Source: Tetracentron sinense (lineage: Eukaryota; Streptophyta; Magnoliopsida; Trochodendrales; Trochodendraceae). From it: DNA of 64,000 bases. The DNA lies in NCBI GenBank assembly GCA_015143295.1, contig CM026565.1:12956041-13020040 (forward strand), given 5' to 3'. The translations under genes and the position numbers were made by a program. The notes under the pieces were generated by a model that saw only the letters and a list, made by a program, of their open reading frames with translations, made no database searches and was not told the origin of the DNA. The stretch's first letter is position 1. Each line of letters begins with the position of its first letter. This document shows, one piece after another, positions 1-42,000 of this stretch.

Positions 1-1425
1 CATACCCATAAGGTCCAGATGGCACAGTAAGGACAGGGGTTGTAGTAAGCCTCTTCTTCAGTTCCGTGAAACTGATCTCGCACTTATCACTCCATACAAA
101 CTTAGCGTTCTTCCTTGTCAGGTAAGTGAGCGGTGCTGCAAGGCTAGAGAAACCATCTACGAATCTCCTGTAGTAGCCTGCCAACCCAAGAAAGCTGTGT
201 ATCTCGGTAACACTCTTGGGCCTCGCCCAACTCATGACTGCCTCTATCTTCTTTGGATCCACCGAAATACCTTCTGCAGAAACAACGTGGCCTAGGAATG
301 CCACCTCTTCCAACCAAAACTCACACTTGCTAAGTTTGGCGTATAGCTTGTGCTCTCTTAGCATTTCCAAAGTAAGGCGTAGGTCGCGTGTGTGATCTTC
401 CCATGTCTGGGAATAGACCAAAATGTCATCAACAAATACAATCACGCACCTATCAAGATATGGCCGGAACACTCGGTTCATCAAATCCATAAAGGCTGCC
501 GGCGCGTTCGTGAGTCCAAAAGGCATCACCAAGAACTCGTAGTGCCCATATCGAGTCCTGAAAGCAGTTTTGGGAACATCTTCCACCTTAATCTTCAACT
601 GGTGATAACCCAATCGAAGATCTATCTTCGAGAAAAATCTCGCTCCCTTCAACTGATCGAACAAGTCATCAATCCTAGGCAAGGGATACCTATTCTTTAT
701 AATGACTTTGTTCAATTGCTGATAATCGATGCACATCCGCATCGAGCCATCTTTCTTCTTAACAAACAACACCGGGGCACCCCACGGTGAGACACTTGGT
801 CAAATGAAACCAAGGCCTTGTAATTCCTCCAACTGAGTCTTCAACTCCTTAAGTTCAATCGGGGCCATTCTATACGGAGCCCTGAATATTGGAGTTGTGC
901 CTGGTGCAAGCTCGATCACAAACTCAATCTCCCAGTTTGGAGGTAATCCTGGCAACTCCTCTGGAAACACATCCAGGAATTCACTCACAACTGGAATTGT
1001 CGATGAGTCCTTTGCCTCGGGGTTAGCTAAGCTCAACGCCGCAAAGCGGGCAATGTCTCTACTTCTCAACCCTCGAAAGTGAAATGGTTTTCCTTCTACC
1101 GGCTTGAAGAGTACCATCTTCTCAAAGCAAGCTACATGCCCATGATGTGCTGCTAACCAATCCATTCCCAATATAACATCAAAGTCTTGGAATCCCAGGA
1201 CGATGAGATCAACCGCCAACTCGTGGCTTCCAACTTGGACCACACTATTTCTATACACTTTATCTGCCAATACTGTTTTGCCGAGAGGAGTCGAAATGGC
1301 TAACTCCGGTTTTAGCTGACTAGGCTCCACAGAAAAGTCTTCTAAAAAACTCGGCGAGACAAACGAATGAGTAGACCCGGTATCAATCAACACTCGAGCC
1401 AAATACTCATTGACTAGTAGGGTTC
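1..1425 (-). pseudogene. Element A pol: aspartic protease and RT (partial, one stop)
   Basis: The protease begins right after the candidate intron and carries the active-site motif [10 protein letters not shown]; a second protease hallmark, ILGMDWL, follows. The protease-RT linker (ELPGLPPNWEIEFVIELAPG) and the first RT blocks then read into a TGA at 800-802, where the sister element B has Gln (LGFI-stop-PSVSPWG). Beyond the stop the frame remains recognisable through the catalytic FVDD box (425-436) to the RT thumb at the window start. The products would process the polyprotein and copy the element's RNA in cytoplasmic particles. One nonsense change is the only clear lesion in the visible part. 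Confidence 0.88.
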
Positions 1426-1571
1426 CTGAAATTTTAACTAGCGGAGTTAATCCATGCATCAACAGCGTATACATGTAGGTATATATACATATAGAACATG
1501 CCAAGTACGTACACAGAGAATAGAGCATAACATAATAATCACGAATAAAGAAATTGACTCTAACTGCGTAC
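1426..1571 (-). other. Candidate spliceosomal intron between gag and protease (A)
   Basis: On the minus strand the 146-bp segment starts GTACGCAG after CAAG and ends AAAATTTCAG before GAACC. It is U-rich as plant introns are, and ATTAAC about 30 nt before the AG can serve as branch point. Removing it joins CAA-G to GA-ACC, giving VVQG then TLLVNEYLARVLIDTGS in one frame, exactly what uninterrupted relatives such as element F encode. Its length (146, not a multiple of 3) breaks the frame, so unspliced RNA ends translation inside the segment. The same position is occupied in elements B and C. Splicing itself is inferred. Confidence 0.72.
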
Positions 1572-2820
1572 CTTGCACCACATCATCAGATGCAAGTGCA
1601 TCACCCTCTGTCAAGGCAAAAACTCGCCCCTGGTTTGCCTGGCGAGACTGAGGTGTAGACCGGGTAGTCTGAGATGACGCCTGGTATGATCCTGCTGGGC
1701 GTGCTGGGGGCCTACTACCCTGAGACTGGCCTGGTAAATGCCGGCTAGGGCAATCCCTGATCATGTGGCCCTGGCGACCGCAATGATAACATCCACCAGA
1801 TGCTCTTCGGTAATCTCCTGCCGGATGCCTTTTGCCGCATGAAGTGCAAACCTCATATGTGTAGGCCGGAGGGACCGAAGGTGGTGTATACCTCGCTGCC
1901 TGAGGGGTAACTGGCCGTGGGGCCGGAAGAGCTTGAGGTGGAGGTGCCTGTGGCACGTACTGCCGGGGTGCTGGAGGCGCATAAGTCGGCCTCATCTGTG
2001 GTGCTGGCCATGTATACTGATAAGGACCAGTCCGGGCCCGCCTCTCTAAAGGTACCGAACCACTAGATTGGCCTCTCGCCAATTCTCTCTTCTTGGACAC
2101 GGTATCTAAATTGGTCTCAACCAACAAAGCTTTATCCACTACTTCGGCGTAAGTGGCGTGCCTGAAGACCGACACTTTCTCCATGATGACATCCTTGATC
2201 CCTTGCTCAAACCTCCTCGCCTTCATTGCCTCGGTGGTAATCATATGTGTCGCGAAACGTGATAGCTCCGAGAACTTGGCCTCATAAGCGGCCACCGACA
2301 TCGAACCTTGCTCAAGGTTGATGAATTCTCTCTCTTTCTTTTCCCGAGCTCCAACCGGGAAATACTTCTTATAGAACGTGTCCTTAAACTCCTCCCAAGT
2401 CCACGGTTGACTTTGCATGGTCAAGTCCCGTGTCCTCAATGTGGACAACTACCAATGGTGGGCTTCGCCCTCTAGCATAAAAACTGCCCATGCCACTTTC
2501 TCTTCCTCTGTAGGAGAGAGCACCGCAAATATCTTCTCAACCTGGAGGATCCAAGCCTCCGCAGTAAGAGGGTCCCCACTCCCGTAAAAGGATGGAGGCC
2601 TCAATCTCCGGAATGTCTCAACTCCAGCTGTACGATGTACTGGAGCTGCAGGAGGTTGAGTAGGTGCCGCTGATGCCGGTATAGTTTGCCGAGCCGTCAG
2701 GATGGCGAGTGTCTCAGCAATAGAGCCTAAGACCTGAGAGAGGTCCGGCTGCTCATCCTCATCCCGTGAAGAAGAGGAAGCTCTGGTATGTGGCCCACGA
2801 CCCCGTGTGTTCCGTCTCAT
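1572..2820 (-). pseudogene. Element A gag (capsid/nucleocapsid), one in-frame TAG
   Basis: The start is the ATG at 2820, giving MRRNTRGRGPHTRAS, also used by B and C. The retrotransposon gag domain follows (FRRLRPPSFYGSGDPLTAEA, then EEEKVAWAVFMLEGEAHHW). A TAG at 2449-2451 replaces the second Trp of HHWW; the same frame then continues through FKDTFYKKYFP to a Pro-rich linker and the zinc knuckle CYHCGRQGHMIRDC. An upstream Cys motif, CTSCGKRHPAGDY, has Tyr where B has Cys (GEC). Gag would form the particle and bind genomic RNA. Without splicing the frame runs into the intron and ends at 1459. Confidence 0.88.
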
Positions 2821-7419: not shown

Positions 7420-9375
7420 TCAGCAAGAAAGTAGCTCAGCATCCATTCCCTGCAACTCTTGGATCATGCTCAGGATATATGGCCTAACTGTGATGTTAGC
7501 CATTACCGGCCTAAACGAAGGGAGACTAAAACTGATGTCAAGATTGGATGCATCCTCCAGCAACCTCCACTCCTTCAGCATCATATGCGCCAAAAGTCCA
7601 GTAGGCTTCCGGCTAAGAGCATCGGCTACAACATTCACTTTGCCCAGATGGTATTGAATGGAGCACTCGTAGTCTTTCAAAAATTCTACTCATCTTCTTT
7701 GCCTCAGGTTTGACTCTTTCTGGGAAAATAAATACTCTTTTATGATCAGTGAATACCTCAAATTGTTCCCCATAAAGATAATGTAGCCAAATCTTCAATG
7801 CAAACACAACCGCGGCAAGCTCTAAGTCGTGAGTGGGGTAATTCTTTTCATGTTCCTTCAATTGCCTTGATGCATAGGCAAAGAATTTCTTGTGCTGCAT
7901 AAGGACACACCCAAGTCTGATGTGCGAAGCATCGCTATACACCTCATAACCACCATATCCGGATGGCACAGTAAGGACGGGGACCGTGGTGAGGCGTTTC
8001 TTCAATTCTCGGAAACTCACTTCAAATTTGTCTCTCCAACTAAACTTAGCATTCTTCCTCGTCAAGTAAGTGAGAGGTGCAGCTAAACTGGAGAATCCCT
8101 CCACAAATCTCCGATAGTAGCCCGCTAATCCGAGGAAACTACGTATCTCTGTGACGCTCTTGGGCCTCTCCCAACTCATGACTGCCTCAACCTTGGCTGG
8201 GTCTACAGAAATGCCCTCGGCCGACACTACGTGGCCTAGGAACGCCACCTTCTCTAACCAGAATTCACACTTGCTCAATTTGGCATATAGCCTATGCTCT
8301 CTCAACATCTCCAAGGCAAGGCGGAGGTCTCGTGCGTAATCTTCCCGTGTCTGGGAATACACCAAAATGTCGTCAATGAACACAATCACGCATCGATCCA
8401 AGTATGATCGAAACACCCGGTTCATCAAATCCATGAACGCCGCCGGTGCATTCGTCAGCCCAAAAGGCATGACAAGGAACTCGTAATGCCCATACCGAGT
8501 CCTGAAAGCCGTCTTCGGAACATCCTCCGACTTGATCTTTAACTGATGATACCCCGATCTAAGATCAATCTTGGAGAAAAATCTCGCTCCCTTCAGTTGG
8601 TCGAATAAGTCGTTTATCCTTGGCAAGGGATAACGATTCTTGAAAGTTACCATGTTCAACTGACGGTAGTCTATATACATTCTCATTGACCCGTCTTTCT
8701 TCTTCACAAAGAGAACCGGAGCTCCCCACGGCGAGACACTTGGTTGGATAAAACCAAGTTGTTGTAACTCCTCAATCTGTTTCTTCAATTCTTCAAGCTC
8801 TATAGGGGCCATTCTATATGGTGCCCTTGAAATCGGAGCGGTTCCCGGAGCAAGCTCTATAGCGAACTCAATCTCTCTATCAAGAGGCAACCCGGGAAGT
8901 TCCTCCAGAAACACATTCAAGAACTCACTCACAACCGCAATAACCGAGGATTTTTGTGCTTCGGGGTTCGCTAAGCTCAAAGCTGCCAAGCGAGCAATAT
9001 CCCTTTCTCTCAATCCTTGGAAGTGAAAAGGTTTGACTCCTTCCGGCTTGAAATTCACCATCTTTTCAAAACACGCAACATGACCGTGATGGTTTGCCAA
9101 CCAATCCATCCCTAGGATGACATCAAAATCCAAGTCTTGGATATCCAAGATGATAAGATCGGCTAACAGTTCATTCTCCCCCACTTGCACCACACAATCT
9201 CTAAATATTTTTTCGGTATCAACTGACTTGCCGAGTGGAGTTGCAATGGTCAACTCCCGCTCTAATGGAGTAGCCTCAGTCAAAAAGCCCTTTGCAAAAC
9301 TTGGTGAGACAAAAGAGTGAGTAGATCCTGTGTCTATCAACACTCAGGCGAGACACTCGTTCACTAATAAAGCGC
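7420..9375 (-). pseudogene. Element B protease, RT and RNase H (frameshifted)
   Basis: From right to left: protease with [10 protein letters not shown] and ILGMDWL; RT with [17 protein letters not shown], the [20 protein letters not shown] box and the catalytic FIDD ([10 protein letters not shown]); then RNase H with [13 protein letters not shown] and [15 protein letters not shown]. The frame is lost just after FTDHK near 7710 and picked up in another frame as [20 protein letters not shown] followed by ALSRK; a TGA at 7420 ends it. A TGA (instead of an Arg or Trp codon) in the exon before LIDTG also separates it from gag. Catalytic residues survive, so the decay is recent relative to element C's deletion. 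Confidence 0.88.
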
Positions 9376-9507
9376 CTGTGCGATTAAGTAACTAATGTCA
9401 GTAGATTTCAAATAGTAACAAGCATCATACATAGGTAACCCCTAATAATAGTCACATAACCAACCATAGGAATCTTACACAACTTAAACTCTAGGATTTT
9501 TGCGTAC
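9376..9507 (-). other. Candidate intron between gag and protease (B)
   Basis: The 132-bp minus-strand segment starts GTACGCAA and ends AATCGCACAG. A textbook plant branch-point match, CTGAC, lies about 27 nt before the AG. Outside the ends it differs greatly from the introns of A and C, yet it sits at the same codon: CAA-T, then GC, then LLVNE. Unspliced reading ends at a TAG six codons in. The exon base before GT is T here, G in A and C. Confidence 0.68.
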
Positions 9508-10744
9508 ATTGCACGACATCGTCGGATGCACGTGCGTCTCTCTCTGATAGGGTGAAGACTTGGCCCTATGTGGCTAGGCGAGGAGGTCGTGTAGACTGTG
9601 AGGCCCTCGAAGCCTGGGAAGAGCTAGGCTGAGATGTTTGCCTAATCGGGGGCCTGCTCCCTGAAGACCGAGCTGGCAAATAACGTCGGGGACAATCTCT
9701 AACCATGTGGCCATGGTCACCACAATGGAAGCAACTTCCTCTAACCCTCCGGCATTCTCCCGCAAAATGCCTCCTTCCACAAAGGGTGCATATATCGTGC
9801 AAAAAGGAGGGAGGAGCATATCCCGTAGCCTGAGTCACTGCAAGGTGTGAAGTCTGAGCAAAAGCCGGGCGAAAAGCCAGTGGAGAAAAAGGGCGGGGAG
9901 CCTGTGGTGCCGAATATATCCTCTGTGACTAAGCCGGCCCTACAGACTGATACAAGCTAGTCCTTGCTCTTTTCTCCCCTGAACTACTCGACTGTCTTTT
10001 CTCCATTCCTCTTCTTTTGAAGAACTCCTTGGAGTTTGACTTGGGCAAAAGTGCCTTGTCCACTACTTCTTAATATGTCTCATGTCTGAAAATTAAGACT
10101 CGGTCCTTGAGGTAGGCCTTCAACCCCCTCTCAAATTTCTGGGCTTTCATAGCCTCAGTCGCTATCATATGTGGAACAAACCGAGATAGCTCCAAAAATT
10201 TAGCTTCATAAGCCGCTACTGACATATTACCTTGCTCCAAGGTAATGAACTCCACTTCCATCTTCTCTTTCATCCCAACCGGGAAATACTTCTTGTTGAA
10301 AACGTCCAAGAATTCCTCCCTAGTCCAGTCTTGACCTTGTCGGGTCAACTCTCGGGTCTGAAGTGCGGACTTCCACCAATGATCAGCCTCACCTTCAAGC
10401 ATGAAGGCGGCCCAAGTAACCCTTTCCTCCTCCGTAGGCGCCAATACAGAGAATATCTTTTCTAATTGCCAAATCCATCCTTCGGCAACAAGCGGGTCAA
10501 TACTCCCACAAAAGGTTAGAGGCCTCATCCTCCGGAAAGCCTCTATTCCGGCTTGTGCTAGATTAGGAGGAGCCGATATAAGCGCGGCATTAGGCGGAGT
10601 GGCCGGTGGACTTGCCGCTAGCATAGCCAAGGTCTCGGCTATTGAATCGAAAGCTTGGGCAAAGCCGGGTTGATCATCACCCGATAGAGCATCACCTCCA
10701 TTGCCCCTTGTGTTGTATGCGCGACCCCGGGTATTGCGTCTCAT
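9508..10744 (-). pseudogene. Element B gag (degenerate)
   Basis: The ATG at 10744 (MRRNTRGRAYNTRGN) matches the starts in A and C, although the frame is open a little further upstream. The gag core (FRRMRPLTFCGSIDPLVAEG, EEERVTWAAFMLEGEADHWW, FNKKYFPVG) is intact down to a TAA at 10070-10072 after FRHETY. The frame then continues through a Lys/Ser-rich stretch and a second in-frame TAG near 9930 to two Cys motifs, CTLCGRRHFAGEC and CFHCGDHGHMVRDC. These are the complete pair expected of Tekay nucleocapsid and serve as the reference for the damaged first motif in A and C. Confidence 0.87.
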
Positions 10745-11060
10745 AATTTCTCCTGAGAACGACAATACAACTTGAGTCTACCTTGGATACGCATTTAGGA
10801 ATAGTTCACAATTTACTCAATACATATTCATCAAGCATATTTATTAAGCACAAATCATGCACACATGCTATATAACACAATATCATAACATACAATCCGT
10901 GTTCCTAGCGTAGGACTCTAAGTTCGGTCGAAGTTCAACCTGTTTTGACTAAGACTAATTTGTTAGTCTATACTTGGAATACGACTCCTTCCTAATACCT
11001 AATGTCTTGTTCAATAATGGTATCGAGTACTAAGCGACCTTAGGAACTCTAATGCCTAGA

Positions 11061-16166: not shown

Positions 16167-18884
16167 TGTAGAGCCCCGGACCCTTTTCACATTTAATGCA
16201 TGACACTTTCATTGCCATTTTGCCTTTAAAGAGGTATAATTAATAAATAAGGAAGAAATTGGAAATTTTGAAATGTCAGAAATGTTTCTTTTCGAAGTAC
16301 GAACCCAACGCAATTTGAATTGTCAAAATCGGACGAACGAGTCAAAAGATATGGCCAAAACAGTCTGGACCTGCAGGCAATCGTAGCTCGGAAGGCACTA
16401 AGGACGTAGCTTGGAAGGCACTAAGGACGTAGCTCGGAAGGAACTACGGACGAAGCTCAGAAGGCACTAAGGACGTGCTCTGACAACGTGCTCTGATAAG
16501 GCACAGACAACGTATAGACAACGTACTCTAATAACGTAGCTCTAGCTCTAATAACGTATACGTTATGCATCCGTTGTGCAACAGACAACGGGTACGTTGT
16601 ACAGCAAACAACGTGTACGTTGTACAGCTCACGACGGGCATGTTGTACATAAGACAATGGACAACGAGCTCAGCACTATGCACAACACAACGTGACAACA
16701 AGTTCGGCACCCTTCACAACGGACAACGTACTCAGCACTATTCACAGCACGACGTGTTTGGCACTGTTCACAGCACAACGTGTTCAGCACTATTCACAGC
16801 ACAACGTGTTCGGCACTATTCACAGCACAACGTGTTCGGCACTATTCACAGCACAACGTGTTCGGCACTATTCACAGCACGACGTGTTCGGCACTATTCA
16901 CAGCTCAATGTGTTCGGCACTCGTGTTTTTGCAGAAATTTCAGTAAGGGTATTATGGTCTTTTGGTCAGTTCACTCTTACCTTAAGAGTTTAACCCGAGC
17001 CTTTAGGGCTCATTCTCAACACTTAGAGGATTTGGGGGATTAGAAGAGAGGAGAAAGGGTTTCCTAAGCTAGGGTTTTGCTTTTGGAGAAGAATCAAAGG
17101 GGTTTTGAGACCCTAGATCACTTCAAGTCCGGTTTTTCTCCAAGATCACGGCTCAAGCACTCATGGAGAGCGTTCCCCAAGCTAGGGCAGCACCTCACGG
17201 TCGTTTTTGGAAGGGGTTTCTTCCTCATTTCTTCAAGGTCGGTACTTCTTACTACCCTCCTAGTTATAGTTCCTCTTTTCCCTTTATTTCTTTTGATTTT
17301 CTTTCATTTACACATGTGTTATGAGATGGATGGTTGTGAATGGTGAATGGAGATGGAATGGGCGATTGGATGCCAAGGGTTGTGTTGTGATGATTAAAAT
17401 GGGAAGGGCATTGTATCCATAATAAACACACCTTTATGATGTGAGTAAACTCACCTAGAAAAGCATGATTTAGGTTTAAATGAATAATGAATAATGAACA
17501 CACCATGTTTGATGAAATGCCAAGGTGAATAAAATGAGTTGTAAATTAGGAAATGTATGCCTAATAAATTATGAATATTGCTAGGGCCTATGATAGTGTG
17601 TTTTCTTGCTTTCCCTAAATGATATGAATATTACATTGCTCAATCATTGATGTTATATGTGTTGTGAAATTACCCAAATGTCATATTTAAATTTAAATGC
17701 AAGTATGTACACGGTTCCCACGAGCACGGCATGCATGACATGATTTATCGAGGTTTTCAAGAACATGGTTAGAGGTGGGACATATCCTACGATATGTTTT
17801 ACCTCGCTCTTGGCAAGGACAAGTCAATCATGCATTATCATAAGAAGGGTCTTCCTTCCCTCGCAAGTACATACATATCATAAGAAGGGTTTCCCTTCCC
17901 TCGCAAGTACATCTCACAAGTGAAAGGACATGACATGAGCATTTAGAAAGAAGGATCTCCCTTCCCTCACAAGTAGTTTACTTTTCCAAGCATGATACAA
18001 GCATGACATGACACGGCATGACAAGCATGAGCATTTTAGGAAGAAGGGTCTCCCTTCCCTCACAAGTAGATTATTTTTCCGAACAAGCAAGCATGATACA
18101 TGACATGACAAGCATGGGCATTTAGGAAGAAGGGTCTCCCTTCCCTCACAAGTAGTTTACTTTTCCAAGCAAGCATGACATGGCATGACACACATGACAC
18201 GCATGATACGATAAGATAAGACAAACTTGACAAGTTTTCAAGCACGGAAATGGTATTTTCAGTCAAGTCAAGTGCACGGTGTTTTCAAGGGTGTTATCGG
18301 CTTTTCATGAAATGCAAGCATGATTATAAATTGCCTTATTTCCTTGTTCTGATATTGATGGCCCCTGCTTTATATATGTGAAATGCTTCCTGCTTCCTAT
18401 ACTGCTATGGTTTTGCTATGACTATTGGTTAGTATTTAGTACCCACTGAGTATTCCATGCTCAGCCGTACTTCTCATGTCGGCAGGTTCTGAGGGAGCTG
18501 CTGCTCCATTTGATGTTTGTGCTCCTGGTCCATGGGTGGAAGAGGAGTACGTCGAGGAGCCTTTGGAGGAACCTCCCGTAGAGGGTTATCAGTAGGTGGT
18601 GTTAGATTCTGAGTGGATTAGCTGTGGGTGAGATGAGAGATATACATTCATGTATTTTGGCGGGTCTGTCCGCTCTTTCTTTTGGTTACTTTTTGTATAA
18701 ACTTGGACCATGTGTATATACTTAGAGGTTGTTAGACTTCCGCTGTGTTTTATAGTTATGTTTCCGCTATAATGTCCTCTATTGTATATGCTCTGTGGGT
18801 TTTTTGCAGGTTGGTTGTCAAGCAAGTCATGATTAGTCGTCCAAAGTTCACTCTAACTCCTAGGGTGGGTTTTGGGTCGCGACA
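16167..18884 (+). repeat. 5' LTR of element C (2,718 bp)
   Basis: Starts TGTAGAGCCCCGGACCC and ends GGGTCGCGACA. The inverted-orientation conserved block is at 16294-16362. Minisatellites follow at 16384-16925, then promoter-proximal sequence with GAGCCTTTAGGGCTC near 17000, a stretch coding nothing recognisable (17040-17800), the GAAGGG hairpin minisatellite (17830-18170) and a conserved U5. The 3' LTR is very similar but has different minisatellite copy numbers. Confidence 0.92.
16384..16925 (+). repeat. Minisatellites in U3 of LTR C
   Basis: Three adjoining arrays: four copies of a 23-bp unit (GTAGCTCGGAAGGCACTAAG plus GAC) at 16384-16475; a looser AACGT/ACGTT palindromic stretch at 16490-16700; and seven copies of a 26-bp unit (CACTATTCACAGCACAACGT plus GTTCGG) at 16737-16920. 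They occupy the place of the palindrome arrays in A, B, K and I. Open frames here arise only from the repeats. Confidence 0.88.
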
Positions 18885-18888
18885 AAAG

Positions 18889-18900
18889 TGGTATCAGAGC
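18889..18900 (+). other. Primer binding site, element C
   Basis: TGGTATCAGAGC, four bases after the LTR end, complementary to initiator tRNA-Met. Confidence 0.9.
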
Positions 18901-19072
18901 CTAGGCTTTAGGTCTTTAGGGTCATTTAGAATCTTATACCACGGCTTGACAAGAGCATATGTTAGGAAACAAGTTAGGAAGGAAGTAAGTCGGGAGCGAG
19001 TCTGGTTCCAAGTGTAAGACTAGACTTTAGTCTTAGTCTAAAATGGTTGCTTTAACCAAGTACGGGTCCTAG

Positions 19073-19235
19073 GTACGCTAGAACGCTAAAGTATAAGTAT
19101 AATGTGATGAATACTCTGATGACTTGATGTGATGTATATTAGTATTATACAACTAATACAAATTGAATTATTGTGAAACGACATTGAAATAAACTGTGGT
19201 TTCAAGTGAGACTCATGTGGTGCTATTGTTCTCAG
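19073..19235 (+). other. Candidate leader (5' UTR) intron of element C
   Basis: GTACGCTAG follows CCTAG, and the span ends TTGTTCTCAG eleven bases before the gag ATG. It is 163 bp, AT-rich, and identical in length and boundaries to the span in element A. As part of a non-coding leader it cannot be tested by frame. Confidence 0.35.
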
Positions 19236-19245
19236 GACTTTAGTC

Positions 19246-20494
19246 ATGAGGCGGGGCACCCGGGGTCGTGGACCACACACCAGAGCTTCATCTTCTTCCA
19301 GAGATGAGGATGAGCAGCCGGACCTCTCCCAGGTCTTAGGCTCTATTGCTGAGACACTCGCCATACTGGCGACTTGGCAAGCTATACCATCGTCGGCGGC
19401 ACCTACTCCACCGCCCGTAGCTCCAGTACATCGTACAGCTGGAGTTGAGGCATTCCGGAGATTGAGGCCTCCATCCTTCCACGGGAGTGTGGACCCTCTT
19501 ACTGCGGAGGCTTGGATCCTCCAGGTTGAGAAGATATTTGCGGTGCTCTCTCCTACAGAGGAAGAGAAAGTGGCATGGGCAATTTTTATGCTAGAGGGCG
19601 AAGCCCACCATTGGTGGTTGTCCGCATTGAGGACACGGGACTTGACCATGCAAGGTCAACCGTGGACTTAGGAGGAGTTTAAGGACACGTTCTATAAGAA
19701 GTATTTCCCGGTTGGAGCTCGGAAAAAGAAAGAGAGAGAATTCAACAACCTTGAGCAAGGTTCGATGTCTGTGGCCGCTCATGAGGCCAAGTTCTCGGAG
19801 CTATCACGCTTCGCGACACACATGATTGCCACCGAGGCAATGAAGGCGAGGAGGTTTGAGCAAGGGCTCAAGGATGTCATAATGGAGAAAGTGTCGGTCT
19901 TCAGGCACGCCACTTACCCCGAAGTAGTGGATAAAGCCTTCTTGGTTGAGACCAATTCAGAGACCGTGTCCAAGAAGAGAGAATTGGCGAGAGGCCAATC
20001 TAGTGGTTCGGTACCTTTAGAGAGGCGGACCCGAACTGGTCCTTATCAGTATACATGGCCAGCACCACAGATGAGGCCGACTTATGCGCCTCCAGCACCC
20101 CGGCAGTACGTGCCACAGGCACCTCGACCTCAGGCTCTTCCGGCCCCACGGCCAGTTACACCTCAGGCAGCGAGGTATACACCACCTTCGGCCCCTCCGG
20201 CCTACACATATGAGGTCTGCACTTCATGCGGCAATAGGCATCCGACAGGAGATTACCGAAGAGCATCTGGTGGATGTTATCATTGCGGTCGCCAGGGCCA
20301 CATGATCAGGGATTGCCCTAGCTGGCATTTACCAGGCCAGTCTCAGGGTAGTAGGCCCCCAGCACGCCCAGCAGGATCATACCAGGCGTCATCTCAGACT
20401 ACCCGGTCTACACCTCAGTCTCGCCAGGCAAACCAGGGGCGAGTTTTTGCCTTGACAGAGGGTGATGCACTTGCATCTGATGATGTGATGCAAG
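19246..20494 (+). pseudogene. Element C gag, one in-frame TAG
   Basis: Starts MRRGTRGRGPHTRAS. The core is FRRLRPPSFHGSVDPLTAEA and EGEAHHWWLSALRTRDLTM. A TAG at 19669-19671 replaces Trp (PWT-stop-EEF); the frame then stays open through SELSRFATHMIATEAMKARR, a Pro-rich region and the zinc knuckle CYHCGRQGHMIRDC. The first Cys motif has Tyr where B has Cys (HPTGDY). The stop lies at a different codon from the one in A although the proteins are close relatives, so the two nonsense changes are independent. The exon ends with CAA-G at 20494. Confidence 0.9.
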
Positions 20495-20636
20495 GTACGC
20501 AGTTAGAGTTAATTTCTTTATTCGTGATTATTATGTTATGCTCTATTCTCTGCGTACGTACTTGGCATGTTCTATATGTATACCTACATGTATACGCTGT
20601 TGATGCATGGATTAACTCCGCTAGTTAAAATTTCAG
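20495..20636 (+). other. Candidate intron between gag and protease (C)
   Basis: The 142-bp segment starts GTACGCAGTTAGAG, ends GTTAAAATTTCAG, is U-rich, and has ATTAAC upstream of the acceptor. Splicing joins CAA-G and GA-ACC, giving VMQG followed by TLLVNEYLARVLIDTGS. Read through, the gag frame gains 44 residues, including the hydrophobic run LFVIIMLCSILCV, and stops at TAA 20626-20628 inside the segment. It is nearly identical to the segment in A, 4 bp shorter. Confidence 0.74.
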
Positions 20637-21538
20637 GAACCCTACTAGTCAATGAGTATTTGGCTCGAGTGTTGATTGATACTGGGTCTACTCATTCGTT
20701 TGTCTCGCCGAGTTTTTCAGAAGGCTTTTCTTGTGGAGCCTAGTCAGCTAAAACCGGAGTTAGCCATTTCGACTCCGCTCGGCAAAACAGTATTGGCAGA
20801 TAAAGTGTATAGAAATAGTGTGGTCCAAGTTGGAAGCCACGAGTTGGCAGTTGATCTAATCGTCCTTGGATTCCAAGACTTTGATGTTATATTGGGAATG
20901 GATTGGTTAGCAATACATCATGGGCATGTAGCTTTCTTTGAGAAGATGGTACTCTTAGAAGGAAAACCATTTCACTTTCGAGGGTTGAGAAGTAGAGACA
21001 TTGCCCGCTTTGCGGCGTTGAGCTTAGCTAACCCTGAAGCAAAGGACTCATCGACTATTCCGGTTGTGAGTGAATTCCTGGATATATTTCCAGAGGAGTT
21101 GTCGGGATTGCCTCCAGATAGGGAGATTGAGTTTGTGATCGAGCTTGCACCAGGCACAGCTCCTGTTTTCAGAGGTCCATATAGAATGGCCCCTATTGAA
21201 CTCAAGGAGTTGAAGACTCAGTTGGAGGAATTGCAAGGCGAGTATCCAAATGGCACCATTTGAGGCCTTGTATGGGCGAAGTTGTAGGTCTCCTCTCTAT
21301 TGGGATGAGGTAGGAGAAAGGAAAGTACTTGGTCCGGAGTTGATTGAGCAAACTGCAGGCACAGTTAAGATCATTCGGGATCGATTGAAAGCCGCTCACG
21401 ATCGCCAGAAAAGTTATGAGGACACGCGCCGTAGGGACTTGGAATTTCAAGTAGGAGATCAAGTTTTTGTGAAAGTATCTCCTAGCAAAGGGATCATGAG
21501 ATTTTGAAAGCGAGGCAAGCTCAGTCCTCGGTATGTTG
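20637..21538 (+). pseudogene. Element C pol remnant: protease, RT start fused to integrase end
   Basis: The protease starts TLLVNEYLARVLIDTGS. A one-base insertion near 20735 shifts the frame (VSPSF then EPSQLKPELAIS). ILGMDWL and the linker ELSGLPPDREIEFVIELAPG follow. At about 21238 the RT beginning (LKTQLEELQG) jumps straight to the integrase C-terminal part (MAPFEALYGRSCRSPLYWDE). The junction reads CAAGGC/GAGTATCC with 2-3 bp of shared sequence, so RT catalysis, RNase H and the integrase core are absent. A TGA at 21505-21507 replaces Gly in RFGKRGKL. The frame is next interrupted by solo LTR K at 21539. Confidence 0.88.
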
Positions 21539-23272
21539 TGTAACGACCCCAAAATCCCACAAGGCTAAAATAGGACTTTGGAATCGCCACATTACTTAAA
21601 AACCTGCTTAAAACCATGCATACAAGGCTACTACACGAGTCTCCAAAAATGAGGATAATAAAATTTCCGATATATATAACCCAAACCAACTAAATAACAC
21701 GAGTCTATAGTCAACAATTACAACGACTAAATCCAAAGGGTCTGATACACAACTATAAAAGTCTACTAAGCAACATCCTCTAAAAGTCAATTACAAAACT
21801 CTCTCAATGAAAAGAAATGTAAACTAAGAGGTGTAGCCGCCCAAGTCTCCGGCTCCCTCCTCAGAAGGCTCACCTTCACCTCCTTCCTCGAGGTAAGTCT
21901 CCTCAACCCACGGCTCCGCCGTGTACTCCTGCTCTATACCTGCCAAGACAAAATCCGGCTGAGTACAAAGGTACTCAGTGTATATAAAATCCAATCAACA
22001 ATAATAATATACCTGCACTTAGTCAGAAACATATCCAATAGCATAATAACATAATCAGAGTGCGGAAGAATGTGTGCGCATATACATCATATCATCACCT
22101 TGACTCGTGTACTTGTGAGAATCTTAGACTTAGAAAACCATACACTTATGAGGTACTTATGCTTACGAGACCACGTGCTTGTGAGATGCTTATGCTTATG
22201 CTTATGCACTTATTCAGATCATACAGTAATGAGACATGCCGTTCTTGGCGGATACGGACCATGCCTTATGCACTTATTCAGATTACACAGTAATGAGACA
22301 TGCCGTTCTTGGCGGATACGAACCATGCCTTTGAAATCATATAGTTGACATGCCGTTCTTGGCGGATACGGACCATGTCATGCTTATGCTTATTCAGAAT
22401 GTCATACATATACCATGTTCATGCTTGTAGTCCACCTGTGTGACTTGTGAGACTCTTATCTTCGCATACATGTGCTTGTGTGCTTAAGTGTCGAAATTAA
22501 TATTCGAGTTGGTAATTGCTTAGATTTCGATTTCCCACCATGGAAACTCCACTATATGTCCCATACCAAATAGTTAGAGAATTCCCGGTTTGAGAGATGT
22601 CCCTCTAAGTTCTTACCTTCCCGACTATCAATTCCCAAGCAAGTAATTAAGTATACATAACAAACAATCACATATATATTTCTTATCATAATTCTTAACA
22701 TCATTTATAATCCATTTACCACCATTTCATAAAAGTATCATAGCATTTATTCTCACAGACATTTTCACAAATACCTTGAGTACACATAATATGAATCCAT
22801 TGTTTCTCTACCTTTTCATGCATTCATCAAATCATAATTTCATCCATACAATCCATATATTCATCCACATCCACAAATTAATCCCATCCTCCATACATTT
22901 CCCATCCTCCATACATTCTATCCACATTTAATCCACATTTCCAATCCACATATCCATCCATAATTAGCTTGCTTCTTAGAAAATTAGGGAAAATGCATCA
23001 AACATCTATTTCTACCATTCCTAGCATCTTAACATTCACAAAACCTTAAAATAAAGTTGATTAGGATAGTATATCGACCTTAGGAATCCTTCCCTTGGAT
23101 TCAAAACGCTCCCGAGACGATTTGGAGAAGCTTCCCAAACTTTTCTTGCAATCTCCTATCAATCTCCTCCTTCTCCAAGAAAACCCTCTTTCAAAACCCT
23201 AAGGTTTCTCCCCCTTTTTGCCAAATTAGGTTAGAACTAGGTGAAGTATTTTAATATTTCGAGTAGGACCCC

Positions 23273-23282
23273 CTATTTATAG
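23273..23282 (-). promoter_or_regulatory. Probable LTR TATA box (K)
   Basis: The minus strand reads CTATAAATAG about 60 bp downstream of K's palindrome array, in the same arrangement as in LTR A. Confidence 0.58.
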
Positions 23283-23343
23283 CCCCAAGGTCTGAGAACA
23301 AAAGACCAAAAAGCCCTTACTAAATTTCTGCAAAAACACGAAG

Positions 23344-23530
23344 GACCGAGCGATCGGTGGTTATAACCGAGCGATCGGTTGCCTACCGATCGATCGGTGT
23401 TTATGACCGGGCGATCGGTCAAAAACACACTCTCTGGAAAATTTCCCCATACAAAATTTTGGACCAGTCGATAGATACCGATCGATCGGTTTTGGACCGA
23501 TCGATCGCTACTTCTGACCGAGCGATTGGT
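23344..23530 (-). repeat. Palindrome array, solo LTR K
   Basis: Seven copies of ACCGATCGATCGGT or variants (ACCGAGCGATCGGT and similar) lie four plus three around CTCTGGAAAATTTCCCC. The array is nearly superimposable on LTR B's, although the two LTRs differ widely elsewhere. Confidence 0.8.
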
Positions 23531-24025
23531 TGCCTATAGATTTTTGACCCGCTTTACTGTTTTGGCCATAACTTTTTACTCGTTCATCGGATTTTGACGA
23601 TTCAACTTGCGTTGGATTCGTCTCTCGAAAATGAACATTTCTGGTGTTTTAGAATTTCTAATTTCCACTTAATTTATAGACTAAAATATCCCCAAAGTTG
23701 ACTGATCTGTAATTCCATTAGACAAAACTCACTATTGACTTGACTTAAACTCAAAATGAGGAAAAACACTAAACATGAACCTCGAAGAGGGTTCCAACAC
23801 CTTTCTAATGGTTCAAGAATCACTCAATTCCAGTGAACGGTGCCAAAACTAGAGCTTCCTAAAGTTTAGGGTGTGATATGACATCCCTCCGTTACAAGTT
23901 TGATTAAGCCTAGTTCACACCACACCAAATAAATATATAATACAATAAACATCAAAACATCATAAGGACTATAATACCCCTAATACAATGAAGTAAAAAC
24001 ATGAAAAAGATTCGGGGTCTCTACA

Positions 24026-24362
24026 TGTTGGGCCTTTTGAGATTGTCACACGACTTGGTGAGGTTGCTTACAGGGTAGCTCTCCCACCTCACATGGCCGT
24101 AGTTCACAACGTCTTCCATGTGTCTATGCTTCAGAAGTACATTGCGGATCCTTCGCATGTCATAAATTTGGAACCGTTGGAGATTCGAGAGGACCTCACC
24201 TTGATTGAAAAGCCGGTTCAGATTTTGGATCGAAGAGATCAGGTGCTTCGCAACAAGACAATCCCTTTGGTTCTTGTGCAATGACAACACCATGCTCGGG
24301 AAGAAGCTATATGGGAGCGTGAAGCCGAAGTCAAAGCAAAGTACCCAGAATTAATTGAATGA
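24026..24362 (+). pseudogene. Element C integrase C-terminus and chromodomain, with TGA
   Basis: Continues from RYV before LTR K: GPFEIVTRLGEVAYRVALPP, NVFHVSMLQKYIADPSHVI, then the chromodomain EKPVQILDRRDQVLRNKTIP. TGA at 24282-24284 stands at the Trp of the VLV-Trp strand. The remaining reading, EEAIWEREAEVKAKYPELIE, ends at TGA 24360-24362. Element B has TGA at the same Trp codon in almost the same local sequence. Confidence 0.9.
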
Positions 24363-24450
24363 GTTTTTGTATAAGTTTGTATATGACTGGTAATTTTATT
24401 TTTGGTTTGTAATGCAAGCAGCGTCTAAATTTCGAGGATGAAATTTTTGT

Positions 24451-24462
24451 AAGGGGGGAGCA
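24451..24462 (+). other. Polypurine tract, element C
   Basis: AAGGGGGGAGCA directly before the 3' LTR start TGTAGAGCC. Confidence 0.88.
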
Positions 24463-27169
24463 TGTAGAGCCCCGGACCCTTTTCACATTTAATGCATGAC
24501 ACTTTCGTTGCCATTTTGCCTTTAAAGAGGTATAATTAATAAACAAGGAAGAAATTGGAAATTCCAAAATGTCAGAAATGTTCCTTTTTGAAGTACGAAC
24601 CCAACGTAAGTTGAATCGTCAAAATCGGACGAACGAGTCAAAAGATATGGCCAAAACAGTCTGGACCTGCAGGCAATCGTAGCTCGGAAGGCACTAAGGA
24701 CGTAGCTCGGAAGGCACTAAGGACGTAGCTCGGAAGGCACTAAGGACGTAGCTCAGAAGGCACTAAGGACGTTGCTCGGAAGGCACTAAGGACGTAGCTC
24801 GGAAGGAACTAAGGACGTGCTCTGACAACGTGCTCTGATAAGGCACAGACAATGCATAGACAACGTACTCTGATAACGTAGCTCTAGCTCTGATAACGTA
24901 TACGTTGTGCATCCGTTGTGCAACAGACAACGGGTACGTTGTACAGCAAACAACGTGTATATTGTACAGCTCACGATGAGCATGTTGTACATAAGACAAC
25001 GGACAACGAGCTCAGCACTATGCACAACACAACGTGACAACGGGTTCGGCACCCTTCACAACGGACAACGTACTCAGCACTATTCACAGCACGACGTGTT
25101 TGGCACTGTTCACAGCACAACGTGTTCAGCACTATTCACAGCACAACATGTTCGGCACTATTCACAGCACAACGTGTTCGGCACTATTCACAGCACAACG
25201 TGTTTGGCACTATTCACAGCACGACGTGTTCGGCACTATTCACAGCTCAACGTGTTCGGCACTCGTGTTTTTGCAGAAATTTCAGTAAGGGTATTATGGT
25301 CTTTTGGTCGGTTCACTCTTACCTTAAGAGTTTAACCCGAGCCTTTAGGGCTCATTCTCAACACTTAGAGGATTTGGGGGATTAGAAGAGAGGAGAAAGG
25401 GTTTCCTAAGCTAGGGTTTTGCTTTTGGAGAAGAATCAAAGGGGTTTTGAGACCCTAGATCACTTCAAGTCCGGTTTTTCTCCAAGATCACGGCTCAAGC
25501 ACTCGTGGAGAGCGTTCCCCAAGCTAGGGCAGCACCTCACGGTCGTTTTTGGAAGGGGTTTCTTCCTCATTTCTTCAAGGTTGGTACTTTTTACTACCCT
25601 CCTAGTTATAGTTCCTCTTTTCCCTTTATTTCTTTTGATTTTCTTTCATTTACACATGTGCTATGAGATGGATGGTTGTGAATGGTGAATGGAGATGGAA
25701 TGGGCGATTGGATGCCAAGGGTTGTGTTGTGATGATTAAAATGGGGAGGGCATTGTATCCATAATAAACACACCTTTATGATGTGAGTAAACTCACCTAG
25801 AAAAGCATGATTTAGGTTTAAATGAATAGTGAATAATGAACACACCATGTTTGATGAAATGCCAAGGTGAATAAAATGAGTTGTAAATTAGGAAATGTAT
25901 GCCTAATAAATTATGAATATTGCTAGGGCCTATGATAGTGTGTTTTCTTGCTTTCCCTAAATGATATGAATAATACATTGCTCAATCATTGATGTTATAT
26001 GTGTTGTGAAATTACCCAAATGTCATATTTAAATTTAAATGCAAGTATGTACACGGTTCCCACGAGCACGGCATGCATGACATGATTTATCGAGGTTTTC
26101 AAGAACATGGTTAGAGGTGGGACATATCCTACGATATGTTTTACCTCGCTCTTGGCAAGGACAAGTCAATCATGCATTATCATAAGAAGGGTCTTCCTTC
26201 CCACGCAAGTACATACATATCATAAGAAGGGTTTCCCTTCCCTCGCAAGTACATCTCACAAGTGAAAGGACATGACATGAGCATTTAGAAAGAAGGGTCT
26301 CCCTTCCCTCACAAGTAGTTTACTTTTCCAAGCATGATACAAGCATGACATGACACGGCATGACAAGCATGAGCATTTTAGGAAGAAAGGCCTCCCTTCC
26401 CTCACAAGTAGATTACTTTTCCGAACAAGCAAACATGATACATGACATGACAAGCATGGGCATTTAGGAAGAAGGGTCTCCCTTCCCTCACAAGTAGTTT
26501 ACTTTTCCAAGCAAGCATGACATGGCATGACACACATGACACGCATGATACGATAAGATAAGACAAACATGACAAGTTTTCAAGCACGGAAATGGTATTT
26601 TCAGTCAAGTCAAGTGCACGGTGTTTTCAAGGGTGTTAACGGCTTTTCATGAAATGCAAGCATGATTATAAATTGCCTTATTTCCTTGTTATGATATTGA
26701 TGGCTCCTGCTTTATATATGTGAAATGCTTTCTGCTTCCTATACTGCTATGGTTTTGCTATGACTATTGGTTAGTATTTAGTACCCGCTGAGTATTCCAT
26801 GCTCAGCCGTACTTCTCATGTCGGCAGGTTCTGAAGGAGTTGCTGCTCCATTTGATGTTTGTGCTCCTGATCCATGGGTGGAAGAGGAGTACGTCGAGGA
26901 GCCTTTGGAGGAACCTCCCGTAGAGGGTTATTAGTGGGTGGTGTTAGATTCTGAGTGGATTAGCTATGGGTGAGATGAGAGATATACATTCATGTATTTT
27001 GGCGGGTCTGTCCGCACTTTCTTTTGGTTACTTTTTGTATAAACTTGGACCATGCGTATATACTTAGAGGTTGTTAGACTTCCGCTGTGTTTTATAGTTA
27101 TGTTTCCGCTATAATGTCCTCTATTGTATATGCTCTGTGGGTTTTTTGCAGGTTGGTTGTCAAGCAAGT
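24463..27169 (+). repeat. 3' LTR of element C (lacks its terminal bases)
   Basis: Closely similar to the 5' LTR, but with six instead of four copies of the 23-bp unit (24679-24817), seven 26-bp units (25080-25262), and the GAAGGG hairpin block at 26175-26510. It ends at GTCAAGCAAGT; the last 63 or so bases (ATGATTAGTCG to GGGTCGCGACA in the 5' copy) are replaced by an inverted LTR segment. Confidence 0.9.
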
Positions 27170-27217
27170 CACAGAGCATATACAATAGAGGACATTATAG
27201 CGGAAACATAACCATAA
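27092..27217. repeat. Inverted repeat at the C/E LTR junction
   Basis: Arms 27092-27139 and 27170-27217 are reverse complements with one mismatch (for example CCTCTATTGTATATGCTCTG against its complement), separated by 30 bp. They are the innermost part of a much longer inverted repeat of C-family LTRs. Confidence 0.9.
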
Positions 27218-39066: not shown

Positions 39067-42000
39067 AATACGGTAGTTGAAGGTACACTTTCAGTTTATA
39101 ACAGCATTGCTAGAGTACTTTTTGATTTGGGAGCTACACATTCTTTCATTTCAGTTACATTTATGAATGCATTGGGCTTAGTGCCAGAATCTATAGATTT
39201 AGCATTATCGGTTGTGACACCATTGGGAGAGTCAACTACTCTTGATCGAATCTGTAGAGAGTGTCCAATTAAGTTTGGGGAGAGAGTTCTTTTAGCTGAT
39301 TTGGTGGTACTCAAGATGCAGGAATTCGATGTACTTTTGGGCATGAATTGGTTGGCGGCCTTTCATGCTAAGTTGTCCTGTTTTGAGAAGACAGTGACTT
39401 TCTCGATTCCTGGTGAGACACCATTTCATTTTAGGAGTAATTGCTCAGAAGGAGTGTTGACTTTAGGGTTCCTCTCTCACATTGAGAGTGTGGATTAGGG
39501 TATCGAGTTGGAGCAGATACACGTTGCCTCCGAGTTTGCTGATGTATTTCAAGAGATACCGGGGTTGCCTCCAAGGAGGGTAGTGGATTTTGGTATTGTT
39601 TTGGTATCGGATACTACACCAATATCAAAGGCACCTTATAGAATGACGCTAATGGAATTGAAGGAGCTGAAAGAGTAGATTCAGGGGTTGTTAAATCAGG
39701 GCTTTATTTGGCCTAGTACTTCACCATGGGGTGTGCCAGTACTATTTGTCAAGAAGAAGGACGGATCAATGCGGTTGTGTATTGATTACCGACAATTGAA
39801 CAAGGTGACATTTAAGAACAAGTACCCTTTGCCTAGGATTGATGATTTATTTGATCAACTTAAGGGAGCACAGTTATTCTCCAAGATCGATTTGAGGTCG
39901 GGTTATCACCAGTTGAGGGTGAAGGAGGAGGACATCTCTAAGACAGCTTTTCGGACTCGGTATGGGCATTACGAGTTCTTAGTCATGCCATTTGGACTGA
40001 CTAATGCACCAACTGCTTTTATGGAGTTGATGAACCAGGTGCTTAACTCTTTCTTAGATCAATTTGTTGTCTTTGTAAATGACATTTTGATTTATTTGAA
40101 GTCTAGTGAAGAGCATGCTCAACATCTTTATATCGCACTTCAGACTTTGCGAAAACATCAGGTGTATGCCAAACTTTCAAAGTGTGAGTTCTGGCAGGAG
40201 CAAGTCAAGTTTTTGGGACATGTCGTCTCAAGAGAAGGAGTGTCAGTGGATCCTACTAAGGTTGAAGAGGTAATGAACTGGGGACAGCCCACTTCAGTTA
40301 CCGAAATTCGTAGTTTTCTGGGTTTGACCGGATACTATCGACGTTTCATTGAGGGATTTTCAAAGATTTCTGCACCTTTAACTCGCCTGACTAAGAAAGA
40401 CGTGAAGTTTGTTTGGGATGATAGTTGTGAGCAGGCTTTTGTTGAGTTAAAGACCCGATTGACATCAGCACCAGTTTTGACCATTCCTAAGAGCAATGGA
40501 GGACTTGTGGTCTATAGTGATGCATCTCATCAGGGCTTGGGGTGTGTTTAGATGGTAAGGCGATTTGCCTATGCATCTTGCCAATTGAAGGTTCATGAGA
40601 AGAACTATCCAACTCATGATTTGGAGTTGGCGGCAGTTGTTTTTGCATTGAAGATATGGAGACATTATCTTTATGGAGAGAAGTTTGAGTTCTTTTCTGA
40701 TCACAAAAGTTTGAAATACCTGTTCTCTCAGAAGGAGTTGAACATGAGACAGCGAAGGTGGATGGAACATCTGAAGGATTATGATTTTACTCTTCACTTT
40801 CATCCTGGGAAGGCTAATATTGTAGCAGATGCATTGAGCCGCAAATCGAGAGGATTAGTTGCTCTTATGATGGTTCAGGAGTGGAATATGTTGGAGGTAG
40901 TTTTAGAATATAATATTCATCCAATTCAGCAGAATGTCAAGGCTTTTCTCTTCAATCCAACTGTCCAACTGACATTGGTCAGTAAAATCATTCAAGCTCA
41001 ATCACAAGATGGAAAGTTGCAATCAAGAGTTGCAGAGGTAGTTGTTGGTAACACTGTAGATTGGGTTGCTGGATCAGATGGCGGTGTGAGATTTCGTAGT
41101 AGATTGTGTGTTCCAGATTTGGCTGATTTAAAGACAGAGGTTCTTGAAGAAGCACATCACGCAAAGTATACAATTCATCCGGGTGGTACAAAGATGTATC
41201 GAGATCTTTGTAGGCACTTTTGGTAGGATGGTATGAAATGGGATGTTGCAGAGTTTGTATCTAGATGTTTGACTTGCCAACAAGTGAAGACTGAGCATCA
41301 GAATCCATTTGGGCCTTTGCAGTCATTGTCCATTGCAGAATGGAAATGGGAGAGGATATCGATGGATTTTGTAGTCGGACTACCAAGGTCGAGACAAGGG
41401 CACGATGCAGTATGGGTAATAGTAGACCGATTAACAAAATCTGCTCACTTTCTTCCGATTCGTACTACTTATTCCATGGATGAGTTGAGTAAGCTATATG
41501 TAAATGAGATAGTTAAACTGCATGGAATTCCTATATCAATAGTCTCAGATCAAGATGCGAGGTTTACATCTCAATTTTGGAAGAGTTTTCAGAGAGCTTT
41601 TGGGACATCATTAGATTTAAGTATTGTTTTTCATTCCCAAACTGATGGCCAGACAGAGCGAGTCAACCAAGTGATGGAAGACATGCTTCGAGCTTGTATC
41701 TTGGATTTTAAGGGTGGTTGGGAAGATCACCTGCCATTAGTAGAGTTTGCCTATAACAACAGCTACCATACCAGTATTGGTATGGCACCTTATGAGGCAT
41801 TGTATGGTAGACCTTATCGATCGCCTATTTGTTGGGCAGAGGAGGGGGATGGTGGTTTGCTTGGGCCTGAGCTGGTTCGGGAAACTACTGAAAATGTAGC
41901 TGTGATCAGAGAGCGGTTAAACACTGCTCAAAGTCGGCAAAAGAGTTATGCAAACCGACGAAGAAGAATTCTAGAGTTTGCTATTAGTGACCATGTTCTT

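What the first reader, a model, noticed from the sequence alone, without database searches (positions are those of the whole stretch)
20495..20636. Intron-like GT-AG segment at the gag/protease border of three Tekay elements
In A (1426-1571), B (9376-9507) and C (20495-20636) a segment of 146, 132 and 142 bp interrupts the same Gly codon between nucleocapsid and protease. All three begin GTACGCA, end in CAG, and have a branch-point candidate (CTGAC in B, ATTAAC in A and C). Removal restores an uninterrupted gag-pol frame matching element F, which has no insertion there. The interiors of B and of A/C have diverged while boundaries and position persist. Inference: unspliced RNA gives Gag alone and spliced RNA gives Gag-Pol, setting the ratio without frameshifting. 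Introns are known in plant Ogre elements (Tat lineage) and regulated splicing of GAG in Arabidopsis ATCOPIA93; I know of none described at this position in Tekay elements.
Basis: partly seen in the sequence, partly recalled or inferred. Interest (0 to 1): 0.88.

Follow-up and report, generated by a model that had tools for sequence, protein, structure and literature searches.

The report
Probable intron between gag and protease
Three old copies of a plant jumping gene carry a short segment that looks like a removable intron exactly between the shell-protein gene and the enzyme genes, which could set how much shell protein is made relative to enzyme, but no RNA evidence was available to prove it is spliced.

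Summary
Segments of 146, 132 and 142 nt (A 1426-1571 -, B 9376-9507 -, C 20495-20636 +) split the same codon (phase 1; Gly in A and C) between nucleocapsid and protease; each starts GTACGCA and ends CAG. Element F and a plant-like locus, L002, read straight through. A spliceosomal intron fits best: GT and AG fall exactly at the edges, the segments are the most T-rich part of the region, and YTRAY candidates lie 21-22 nt from the end. Recoding would need -1 in A, +1 in C and five-stop readthrough in B. A and B have near-saturated synonymous divergence but dN/dS 0.035-0.107, so both lineages stayed functional while, if the segment is ancestral, carrying it. P0001, a Gag 54% identical to A's, departs at the same Gly. 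The Gag/Gag-Pol ratio role is inferred from Ogre. No RNA could be examined, the own-genome search did not complete, all copies are otherwise broken, and A and C count as one lineage. New variant of a known strategy.

The parts
20495..20636 (+). Intron-like segment of element C, 142 nt, phase 1 in a Gly codon
1426..1571 (-). Intron-like segment of element A, 146 nt, same site
9376..9507 (-). Intron-like segment of element B, 132 nt, same site, interior not alignable to A/C beyond chance
20492..20500 (+). Donor AAG|GTACGC of C (7 of 9 consensus positions; best of 91 GT sites in the gag-protease stretch; consensus recalled)
20615..20615 (+). Candidate branch-point A of C (TTAAC, 21 nt before segment end); corresponding A 1447 (-), B 9398 (-, CTGAC)
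20550..20557 (+). CTGCGTAC, 8-nt complement of the donor GTACGCAG (possible hairpin hiding the 5' splice site; supported in A/C, not in B)
19675..20625 (+). C gag reading frame (partial Retrotrans_gag, zinc knuckle) running 43 codons into the segment, stop at 20626-20628
1462..2448 (-). A gag reading frame (partial Retrotrans_gag, zinc knuckle) running 36 codons into the segment
803..1423 (-). A protease (RVP_2, E 1.8e-30), resumes at the codon after the split Gly
2..778 (-). A reverse transcriptase, open to the window edge
7616..9340 (-). B protease-RT-RNase H reading frame
10073..10777 (-). B gag capsid part (Retrotrans_gag); the gag tail nearer the segment holds a stop
20637..20936 (+). C protease start; the frame is shifted partway through, so this copy is broken
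39082..39084 (+). Uninterrupted Gly codon GGT at the homologous site in element F (empty-site comparison)
18889..18900 (+). Primer binding site of C, match to initiator tRNA-Met (also A 3176 -, B 11072 -, F 37896 +; motif recalled)
16167..18829 (+). 5' LTR of C (at least this far), 96% identical to 24463-27171

Best explanation
The segment is a short (132-146 nt) spliceosomal intron carried by a lineage of plant Ty3/gypsy chromovirus-like elements, placed in phase 1 in the conserved Gly codon that opens the protease domain. The element most likely splices it only partially. RNA that keeps the intron is translated to Gag with a short extra tail, and must also be the RNA that is reverse-transcribed, because the intron persists. 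Spliced RNA joins gag to pol in one frame and yields Gag-Pol. Shown: position, edges, composition, frames, purifying selection on the flanks, and departure of one more family's Gag at the same Gly. Inferred: that splicing occurs, that it is partial, and that it sets the Gag:Gag-Pol ratio.
For: Exact empty-site comparison: F reads ..VVEGTLSVYNSIARVLFDLGATHSF, while A reads ..VVQG|segment|TLLVNEYLARVLIDTGSTHSF; L002, a plant-like contig filed under a bacterium, also reads through. GT and AG lie exactly at the edges; in A and C the donor is the best of 100 and of 91 GT sites in the gag-protease stretch. T content is 0.38-0.41; of 1223 (A), 2066 (B) and 1147 (C) segment-free 140-nt windows none reaches it. 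GC is 0.34-0.35 against 0.55-0.56 upstream and 0.44-0.45 downstream. Recoding would have to be -1 in A, +1 in C and five-stop readthrough in B. A-B flanks: dS 2.2-2.9 (near saturation, so imprecise), dN/dS 0.107 (gag tail), 0.073 (protease), 0.035 (RT). The first seven bases are identical in A, B and C, although only 23 of 59 four-fold sites match between A and B in protease. P0001 (Gag, 54% identical over 75% of the query, 942-bp contig) reads ..DDVVQ-G-TSSQSFITAWY and ends: departure at the same Gly, with residues compatible with GGT AC.
Against: No RNA evidence. Only two independent lineages in the window. All three copies carry other lesions, so none can be working now. Between A and C the gag tail shows no sign of constraint (few changes, dN/dS 1.3). 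Acceptors are mediocre by a simple score: 15 of 140 AG sites score better in A, 8 of 197 in B, 17 of 138 in C. B's donor ranks only 5th of 129, tied with others. The last 30 nt show no C-B similarity beyond chance (1102 of 2000 shuffles) (all). Common origin of the A/C and B segments therefore rests on site, phase and the 5' end. P0001 could be a truncated copy; its DNA was not seen. Elements without the segment are common: all 29 of the 120 listed protease-query hits that carry the border motif read through it (27 by motif, 2 by eye), though that set was chosen by protease.
Confidence: 0.6

Rival explanations
1. It is an efficiently and constitutively spliced intron with no ratio-setting role; the unspliced RNA is only the packaged genome and contributes little Gag.
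For: Good donor in A/C and T-rich; normal size for a plant intron (recalled).
Against: Efficient splicing should produce many spliced RNAs and hence intron-free copies; the three copies of this lineage found by motif scan in the window all retain it (3 of 3). The C at donor position +4 is off the recalled consensus and shared by both lineages.
Confidence: 0.2
2. The segment is a gag-pol overlap used for programmed frameshifting.
For: In A the protease frame is open through the whole segment and overlaps the gag frame by over 100 nt; C has an overlap of about 100 nt.
Against: A would need -1 and C +1 although their segments match at 140 of 142 aligned bases; B has gag and protease in the same frame with five stops; no -1 type X XXY YYZ heptamer was found in the scanned stretch, +1 sites were not scanned. 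The composition is intron-like.
Confidence: 0.05
3. The segment is a neutral old insertion (for example a MITE remnant or duplication-mediated insert) in dying copies.
For: All three copies are broken. The sequence beside the two edges in A/C is similar (GGTACGC and GGAACCC, 5 of 7), like a short duplicated target.
Against: The flanks evolved under strong purifying selection between A and B, and the segment has GT-AG edges exactly at the boundary. No other copy of the segment was found in the window apart from a weak 28-nt match to B at 44180. It remains a plausible origin for the intron.
Confidence: 0.1
4. The donor also, or instead, serves a short-GAG transcript, as in EVD and BARE1: splicing from the Gly donor to another acceptor so that only Gag is made.
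For: Several annotated plant Gag models depart at this same point to unrelated tails, including an 'isoform X2' from Camellia; F already has AAG|GTAC in intron-free coding sequence.
Against: Gene-model splices may be artefacts. In A/B/C the nearby AG exactly restores homology, which a short-GAG scheme would not require.
Confidence: 0.05

Closest known systems
Ogre (Ty3/gypsy, Tat lineage) intron
   Different: In Ogre the region lies between GAG-PROT and RT and averages 274 bp; here it lies between gag and protease, is 132-146 nt, and sits in a chromovirus-like element. Splicing is experimentally shown for Ogre, not here.
BARE1 (Ty1/copia) alternative intron
   Same: A 104-nt GT-AG, U-rich segment at the start of protease, alternatively spliced (PMC3735527, passages).
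   Different: Reversed logic: in BARE1 the segment is coding and its removal leaves Gag only. Here the segment is extra sequence and its removal would make Gag-Pol.
EVD/ATCOPIA93 short GAG
   Same: Splicing sets the amount of Gag (PMC8892269 and PMC12786077, passages).
   Different: Copia superfamily; splicing removes the protease domain and is coupled to premature polyadenylation.
Bianca (Ty1/copia) separated ORFs
   Same: Two ORFs separated on average by 172 bp (PMC6317226, section 13).
   Different: Copia superfamily; the section read does not report splicing for it.

Membership tests
Spliceosomal (U2-type) intron | GT-AG edges exactly at the boundary of extra sequence relative to homologues | tested here: met
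Spliceosomal (U2-type) intron | U-rich composition against flanking exons (criterion as stated in PMC3735527) | tested here: met
   for the criterion
Spliceosomal (U2-type) intron | Branch point and acceptor of usual quality | tested here: inconclusive
   YTRAY at 21-22 nt, but acceptors not the best in the region
Spliceosomal (U2-type) intron | Removed from RNA | not testable with these tools
   no RNA reads available
Chromovirus (Ty3/gypsy) | Gag with CCHC knuckle, RVP_2 protease, RT, RNase H, integrase order | tested here: met
   (B most complete)
Chromovirus (Ty3/gypsy) | C-terminal chromodomain | tested here: inconclusive
   F: Pfam Chromo E 0.0026, 18.1 bits, below the 25.1 cut-off. B and C: chromodomain-like stretch broken by stops, read by eye against a recalled motif
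Chromovirus (Ty3/gypsy) | tRNA-Met primer binding site | tested here: met
   12 of 12 in B, C, F; 11 of 12 in A (motif recalled)
Tekay clade | Placement in RT/RH/INT phylogeny | not tested
   no clade-labelled references were used
Ogre | Intron between GAG-PROT and RT | tested here: not met
   segment lies between gag and protease
Ogre | Second (archaeal-type) RNase H domain | not tested
   not searched for specifically
Programmed frameshift site | One consistent shift and a slippery site in related copies | tested here: not met
   (-1 heptamers only; +1 sites not scanned)

The most novel reading that the evidence does not exclude
The Gly codon at the gag/protease border is a recurrent splice donor in many plant chromoviruses: in some lineages it opens a short intron whose retention makes Gag (this finding, P0001), and in others it may launch short-Gag transcripts. 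Of 103 Gag-like proteins the border was located by rule in 42. In 20 of these 42 the protein ends 1 to 26 residues past the point with a tail not called protease; two (P0010, P0217) I set aside by eye, leaving 18, from Juglans, Castanea, Quercus, Camellia, Syzygium, Olea, Sarracenia, Dionaea, Persea and three unnamed sources. In 7 of 42 protease follows; 15 fit neither class by the rule, and some of those also continue into protease by eye.
Probability: 0.3. Interest if true: 0.78.

Novelty: new variant of a known kind. Interest (0 to 1): 0.62.

Why it matters
How plant Ty3/gypsy elements that encode one polyprotein make much more Gag than Pol is, to my knowledge, an open question. A 2025 review (PMC12786077, passages) says plant LTR elements generally lack introns, naming Ogre and EVADE as exceptions. 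An intron at the gag/protease border that has persisted over near-saturating divergence would add a splicing solution in another group of plant retrotransposons. It gives a directly testable prediction: one junction, findable in RNA data.

Tried and rejected
Programmed frameshifting: rejected as a common mechanism because the three copies need different shifts.

Conserved donor hairpin: pairing of the first 9 nt with the rest was reached by 1 of 300 shuffles in C, 8 of 300 in A and 56 of 300 in B. Low accessibility of the donor was reached by 17 of 300 in C, 75 in A and 127 in B. Folding of the segments alone: z -1.88 (C), -1.45 (A without its last 4 nt), +0.72 (B). Kept as a lead for A/C only, which are one lineage.

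Known RNA family: no Rfam match at gathering score in the window.

Relatives as DNA: three scans of viral contigs confirmed none. The one genome-contig scan gave three loci out of 53 candidate stretches. L002 reads through the border; L003, a more distant type, has knuckle and protease in one frame with no comparable segment; L001 showed neither motif.

Ending of Gag models at the Gly: a striking pattern, but the search accepts only proteins 0.55-1.75 times the query length, so full-length read-through polyproteins were excluded, and many are annotated gene models whose splices may be artefacts. In P0147 and P0196 the residue is Asp, not Gly, which a phase-1 splice could produce; I kept them. 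P0010 was set aside because its border differs (LLVED), P0217 because its tail begins like protease. Of the 15 unplaced, P0011, P0012, P0146 and P0180 continue into a protease motif, and P0145, P0160, P0162, P0165 and P0169 rejoin protease sequence further in. Tails such as those of P0138 and P0176 look more like spliced-on exons than read-in. The pattern supports the site as a donor, not prevalence.

Literature: ten searches. In PMC3059260 the terms 'splic' and 'intron' were not found. PMC7765848 passages report one Ty3/gypsy Gag RNA without intron. PMC7730604 passages: the spliced elements Tyran and Varan are Ty1/copia. PMC2533021 passages mention an intron in POL of an Ogre family.

Full report
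What is there. The window holds several plant LTR retrotransposons among tandem repeats with a 178-179 bp unit. Elements A (minus, 5' part in the window), B (minus) and C (plus) each carry extra sequence between the nucleocapsid zinc knuckle and the protease. The segments are 146 nt (1426-1571), 132 nt (9376-9507) and 142 nt (20495-20636). All begin GTACGCA and end CAG, and each splits the same codon after its first base, Gly in A and C; in B the base before the segment is T, which would make the codon Cys. Upstream the A frame ends ..RVFALTEGDALASDDVVQ-G; downstream it resumes TLLVNEYLARVLIDTGSTHSFVS in the protease (RVP_2). Element F reads through the homologous point as ..NTVVEGTLSVYNSIARVLFDLGATHSFIS with a GGT Gly codon at 39082-39084. 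L002, a plant-like contig filed under a Mycobacterium assembly, reads ..SSEMIQGTCYIYGFALMVLFDSGASHSFIS. So the boundaries of the extra sequence are fixed by homologues that lack it.

Why an intron. GT and AG coincide with those boundaries. Counting matches to a recalled nine-position donor consensus, the donor is the best of 100 GT sites in A and of 91 in C, but only fifth of 129 (with ties) in B. The acceptors are ordinary rather than outstanding (15 of 140 AG sites score better in A, 8 of 197 in B, 17 of 138 in C). Branch-point candidates TTAAC (A, C) and CTGAC (B) lie 21-22 nt from the end. T content is 0.38-0.41 and is reached by none of the 1223, 2066 and 1147 segment-free windows of the same stretches (all). 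GC is 0.34-0.35 against 0.55-0.56 upstream and 0.44-0.45 downstream.

Why not recoding. The lengths are 2, 0 and 1 modulo 3. Without removal, gag and protease would need a -1 shift in A and a +1 shift in C, whose segments match at 140 of 142 aligned bases apart from one 4-nt gap. In B they share a frame but are separated by five stops. No -1 slippery heptamer was found in the scanned stretch; +1 sites were not scanned. Removal is the single operation that fits all three.

Depth and constraint. A and C are close copies, so they count once, and between them the gag tail shows no sign of constraint (dN/dS 1.3 on few changes). A and B are far apart: synonymous divergence is 2.2-2.9, close to saturation and therefore imprecise, yet dN/dS is 0.107 in the gag tail, 0.073 in protease and 0.035 in RT. 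The coding flanks were therefore kept functional on the lineages separating A from B. If the segment is ancestral, as the identical site, phase and 5' end suggest, it went through many rounds of functional retrotransposition. Between C and B the interior is not alignable beyond chance (288 of 2000 shuffles), nor is the last 30 nt (1102 of 2000), whereas the first 30 nt score high (11 of 2000) and lift the whole-segment score (8 of 2000). Five of five bases after GT agree, with chance about 0.002 from composition, while 23 of 59 four-fold sites agree between A and B in protease. Both lineages share a C at donor position +4, off the recalled consensus. That is compatible with selection for a weak donor, but also with descent from the coding sequence itself, because F's intron-free DNA already reads AAG|GTAC there. 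The similar GGTACGC and GGAACCC at the two edges in A/C would fit an origin by insertion with a short target duplication.

Beyond the window. P0001, a Gag fragment 54% identical to A's over 75% of the query and from a 942-bp contig, ends ..DDVVQ-G-TSSQSFITAWY: it leaves homology at the same Gly with residues compatible with GGT AC. More distant plant Gag proteins show the same break. In the 103 proteins the border could be located by rule in 42. In 20 the protein ends 1 to 26 residues past it with a tail not called protease, in 7 protease follows, and 15 fit neither. Two of the 20 (P0010, P0217) I set aside by eye; two of the 18 kept (P0147, P0196) have Asp in place of Gly, which a phase-1 splice could give. 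At least nine of the 15 unplaced proteins reach protease sequence by eye. Within walnut, P0006 and P0008 continue into protease while P0141 leaves at the same Gly with MTSWLCF and, in a Juglans hybrid, P0153 with MTLWFYFKDL, as expected if GTATGA follows; their DNA was not seen. One Camellia model is labelled isoform X2. Against generality, all 29 of the 120 listed protease-query hits that carry the border motif read through it (27 by motif, 2 by eye), though that set was chosen by protease. The Gag pattern cannot give prevalence either, since the search excluded full-length polyproteins by length, and some breaks may be gene-model artefacts. It marks the Gly as a recurrent real or cryptic donor.

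How it most likely works. By analogy with Ogre, whose intron is removed from a subset of transcripts so that the whole polyprotein can be translated (PMC6317226 section 13), unspliced RNA would yield Gag with a tail of 36 (A), 43 (C) or 4 (B) residues and also serve as genome, while spliced RNA would yield Gag-Pol. Partial splicing and the ratio role are inference. A hairpin in A/C pairs the donor with a downstream complement and could dampen splicing, but the same test fails in B, so it is only a lead.

Limits. No RNA was available. The own-genome search did not complete in eleven identical requests. All three copies are broken elsewhere: B has a stop in the gag tail and one in protease, C a protease frameshift and no hit for the RT motif, A a stop between protease and RT, and the A and C gag frames open inside the gag domain. 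Tekay placement was not tested. The elements have the gag-protease-RT-RNase H-integrase order (most complete in B) and a tRNA-Met primer site, and F has a weak chromodomain match.

Known or new. The passages and sections read give introns in Ogre (between GAG-PROT and RT), alternative splicing in BARE1 and EVD (copia), and separated ORFs in Bianca. Ten searches of CC-licensed papers listed nothing whose title or abstract opening describes an intron at the gag/protease border of a chromovirus; most subscription papers were not covered, and I did not open every listed paper. I rate it a new variant of a known kind.

Noticed in passing
13376-16163, 32138-33032, 45802-53949, 58619-60119: Tandem arrays of a 178-179 bp unit with copies about 75% matched, with breaks; suggests a centromere-like or other satellite region of a plant chromosome.
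   Followed up: partly
54412-58258 (-): A LINE-like element (Exo_endo_phos, RVT_1, zf-RVT in consecutive overlapping ORFs) sits between two satellite arrays.
   Followed up: partly
34081-36081 (+): A second LINE-like fragment (zf-RVT and RVT_3) with a 667-codon open frame.
   Followed up: no
16167-27171 (+): Element C has LTRs of about 2.7 kb, 96% identical. After protease the RT motif is missing, integrase-like sequence stands at 21268-21504, and its continuation with a chromodomain-like remnant only at 24027: about 2.5 kb without recognised coding lies between. Probably a non-autonomous derivative that keeps gag, the segment and protease.
   Followed up: partly
29905-32138 (-): A stretch about 91% identical to C's LTR in reverse orientation, so another related element or solo LTR lies nearby.
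   Followed up: no
27567-28026: An array of a 24-bp unit, about 19 copies, 95% matched; several long overlapping open frames there are probably just a by-product of the repeat.
   Followed up: no
L001 (Streptomyces record) and L002 (Mycobacterium record): Contigs filed under bacterial genomes encode plant-type Ty3/gypsy polyprotein, most likely contamination.
   Followed up: partly
20494-20500 and 20636-20642 (C): The sequence at the two edges of the segment is similar (GGTACGC and GGAACCC, 5 of 7), a possible trace of a target duplication at the intron's origin.
   Followed up: partly
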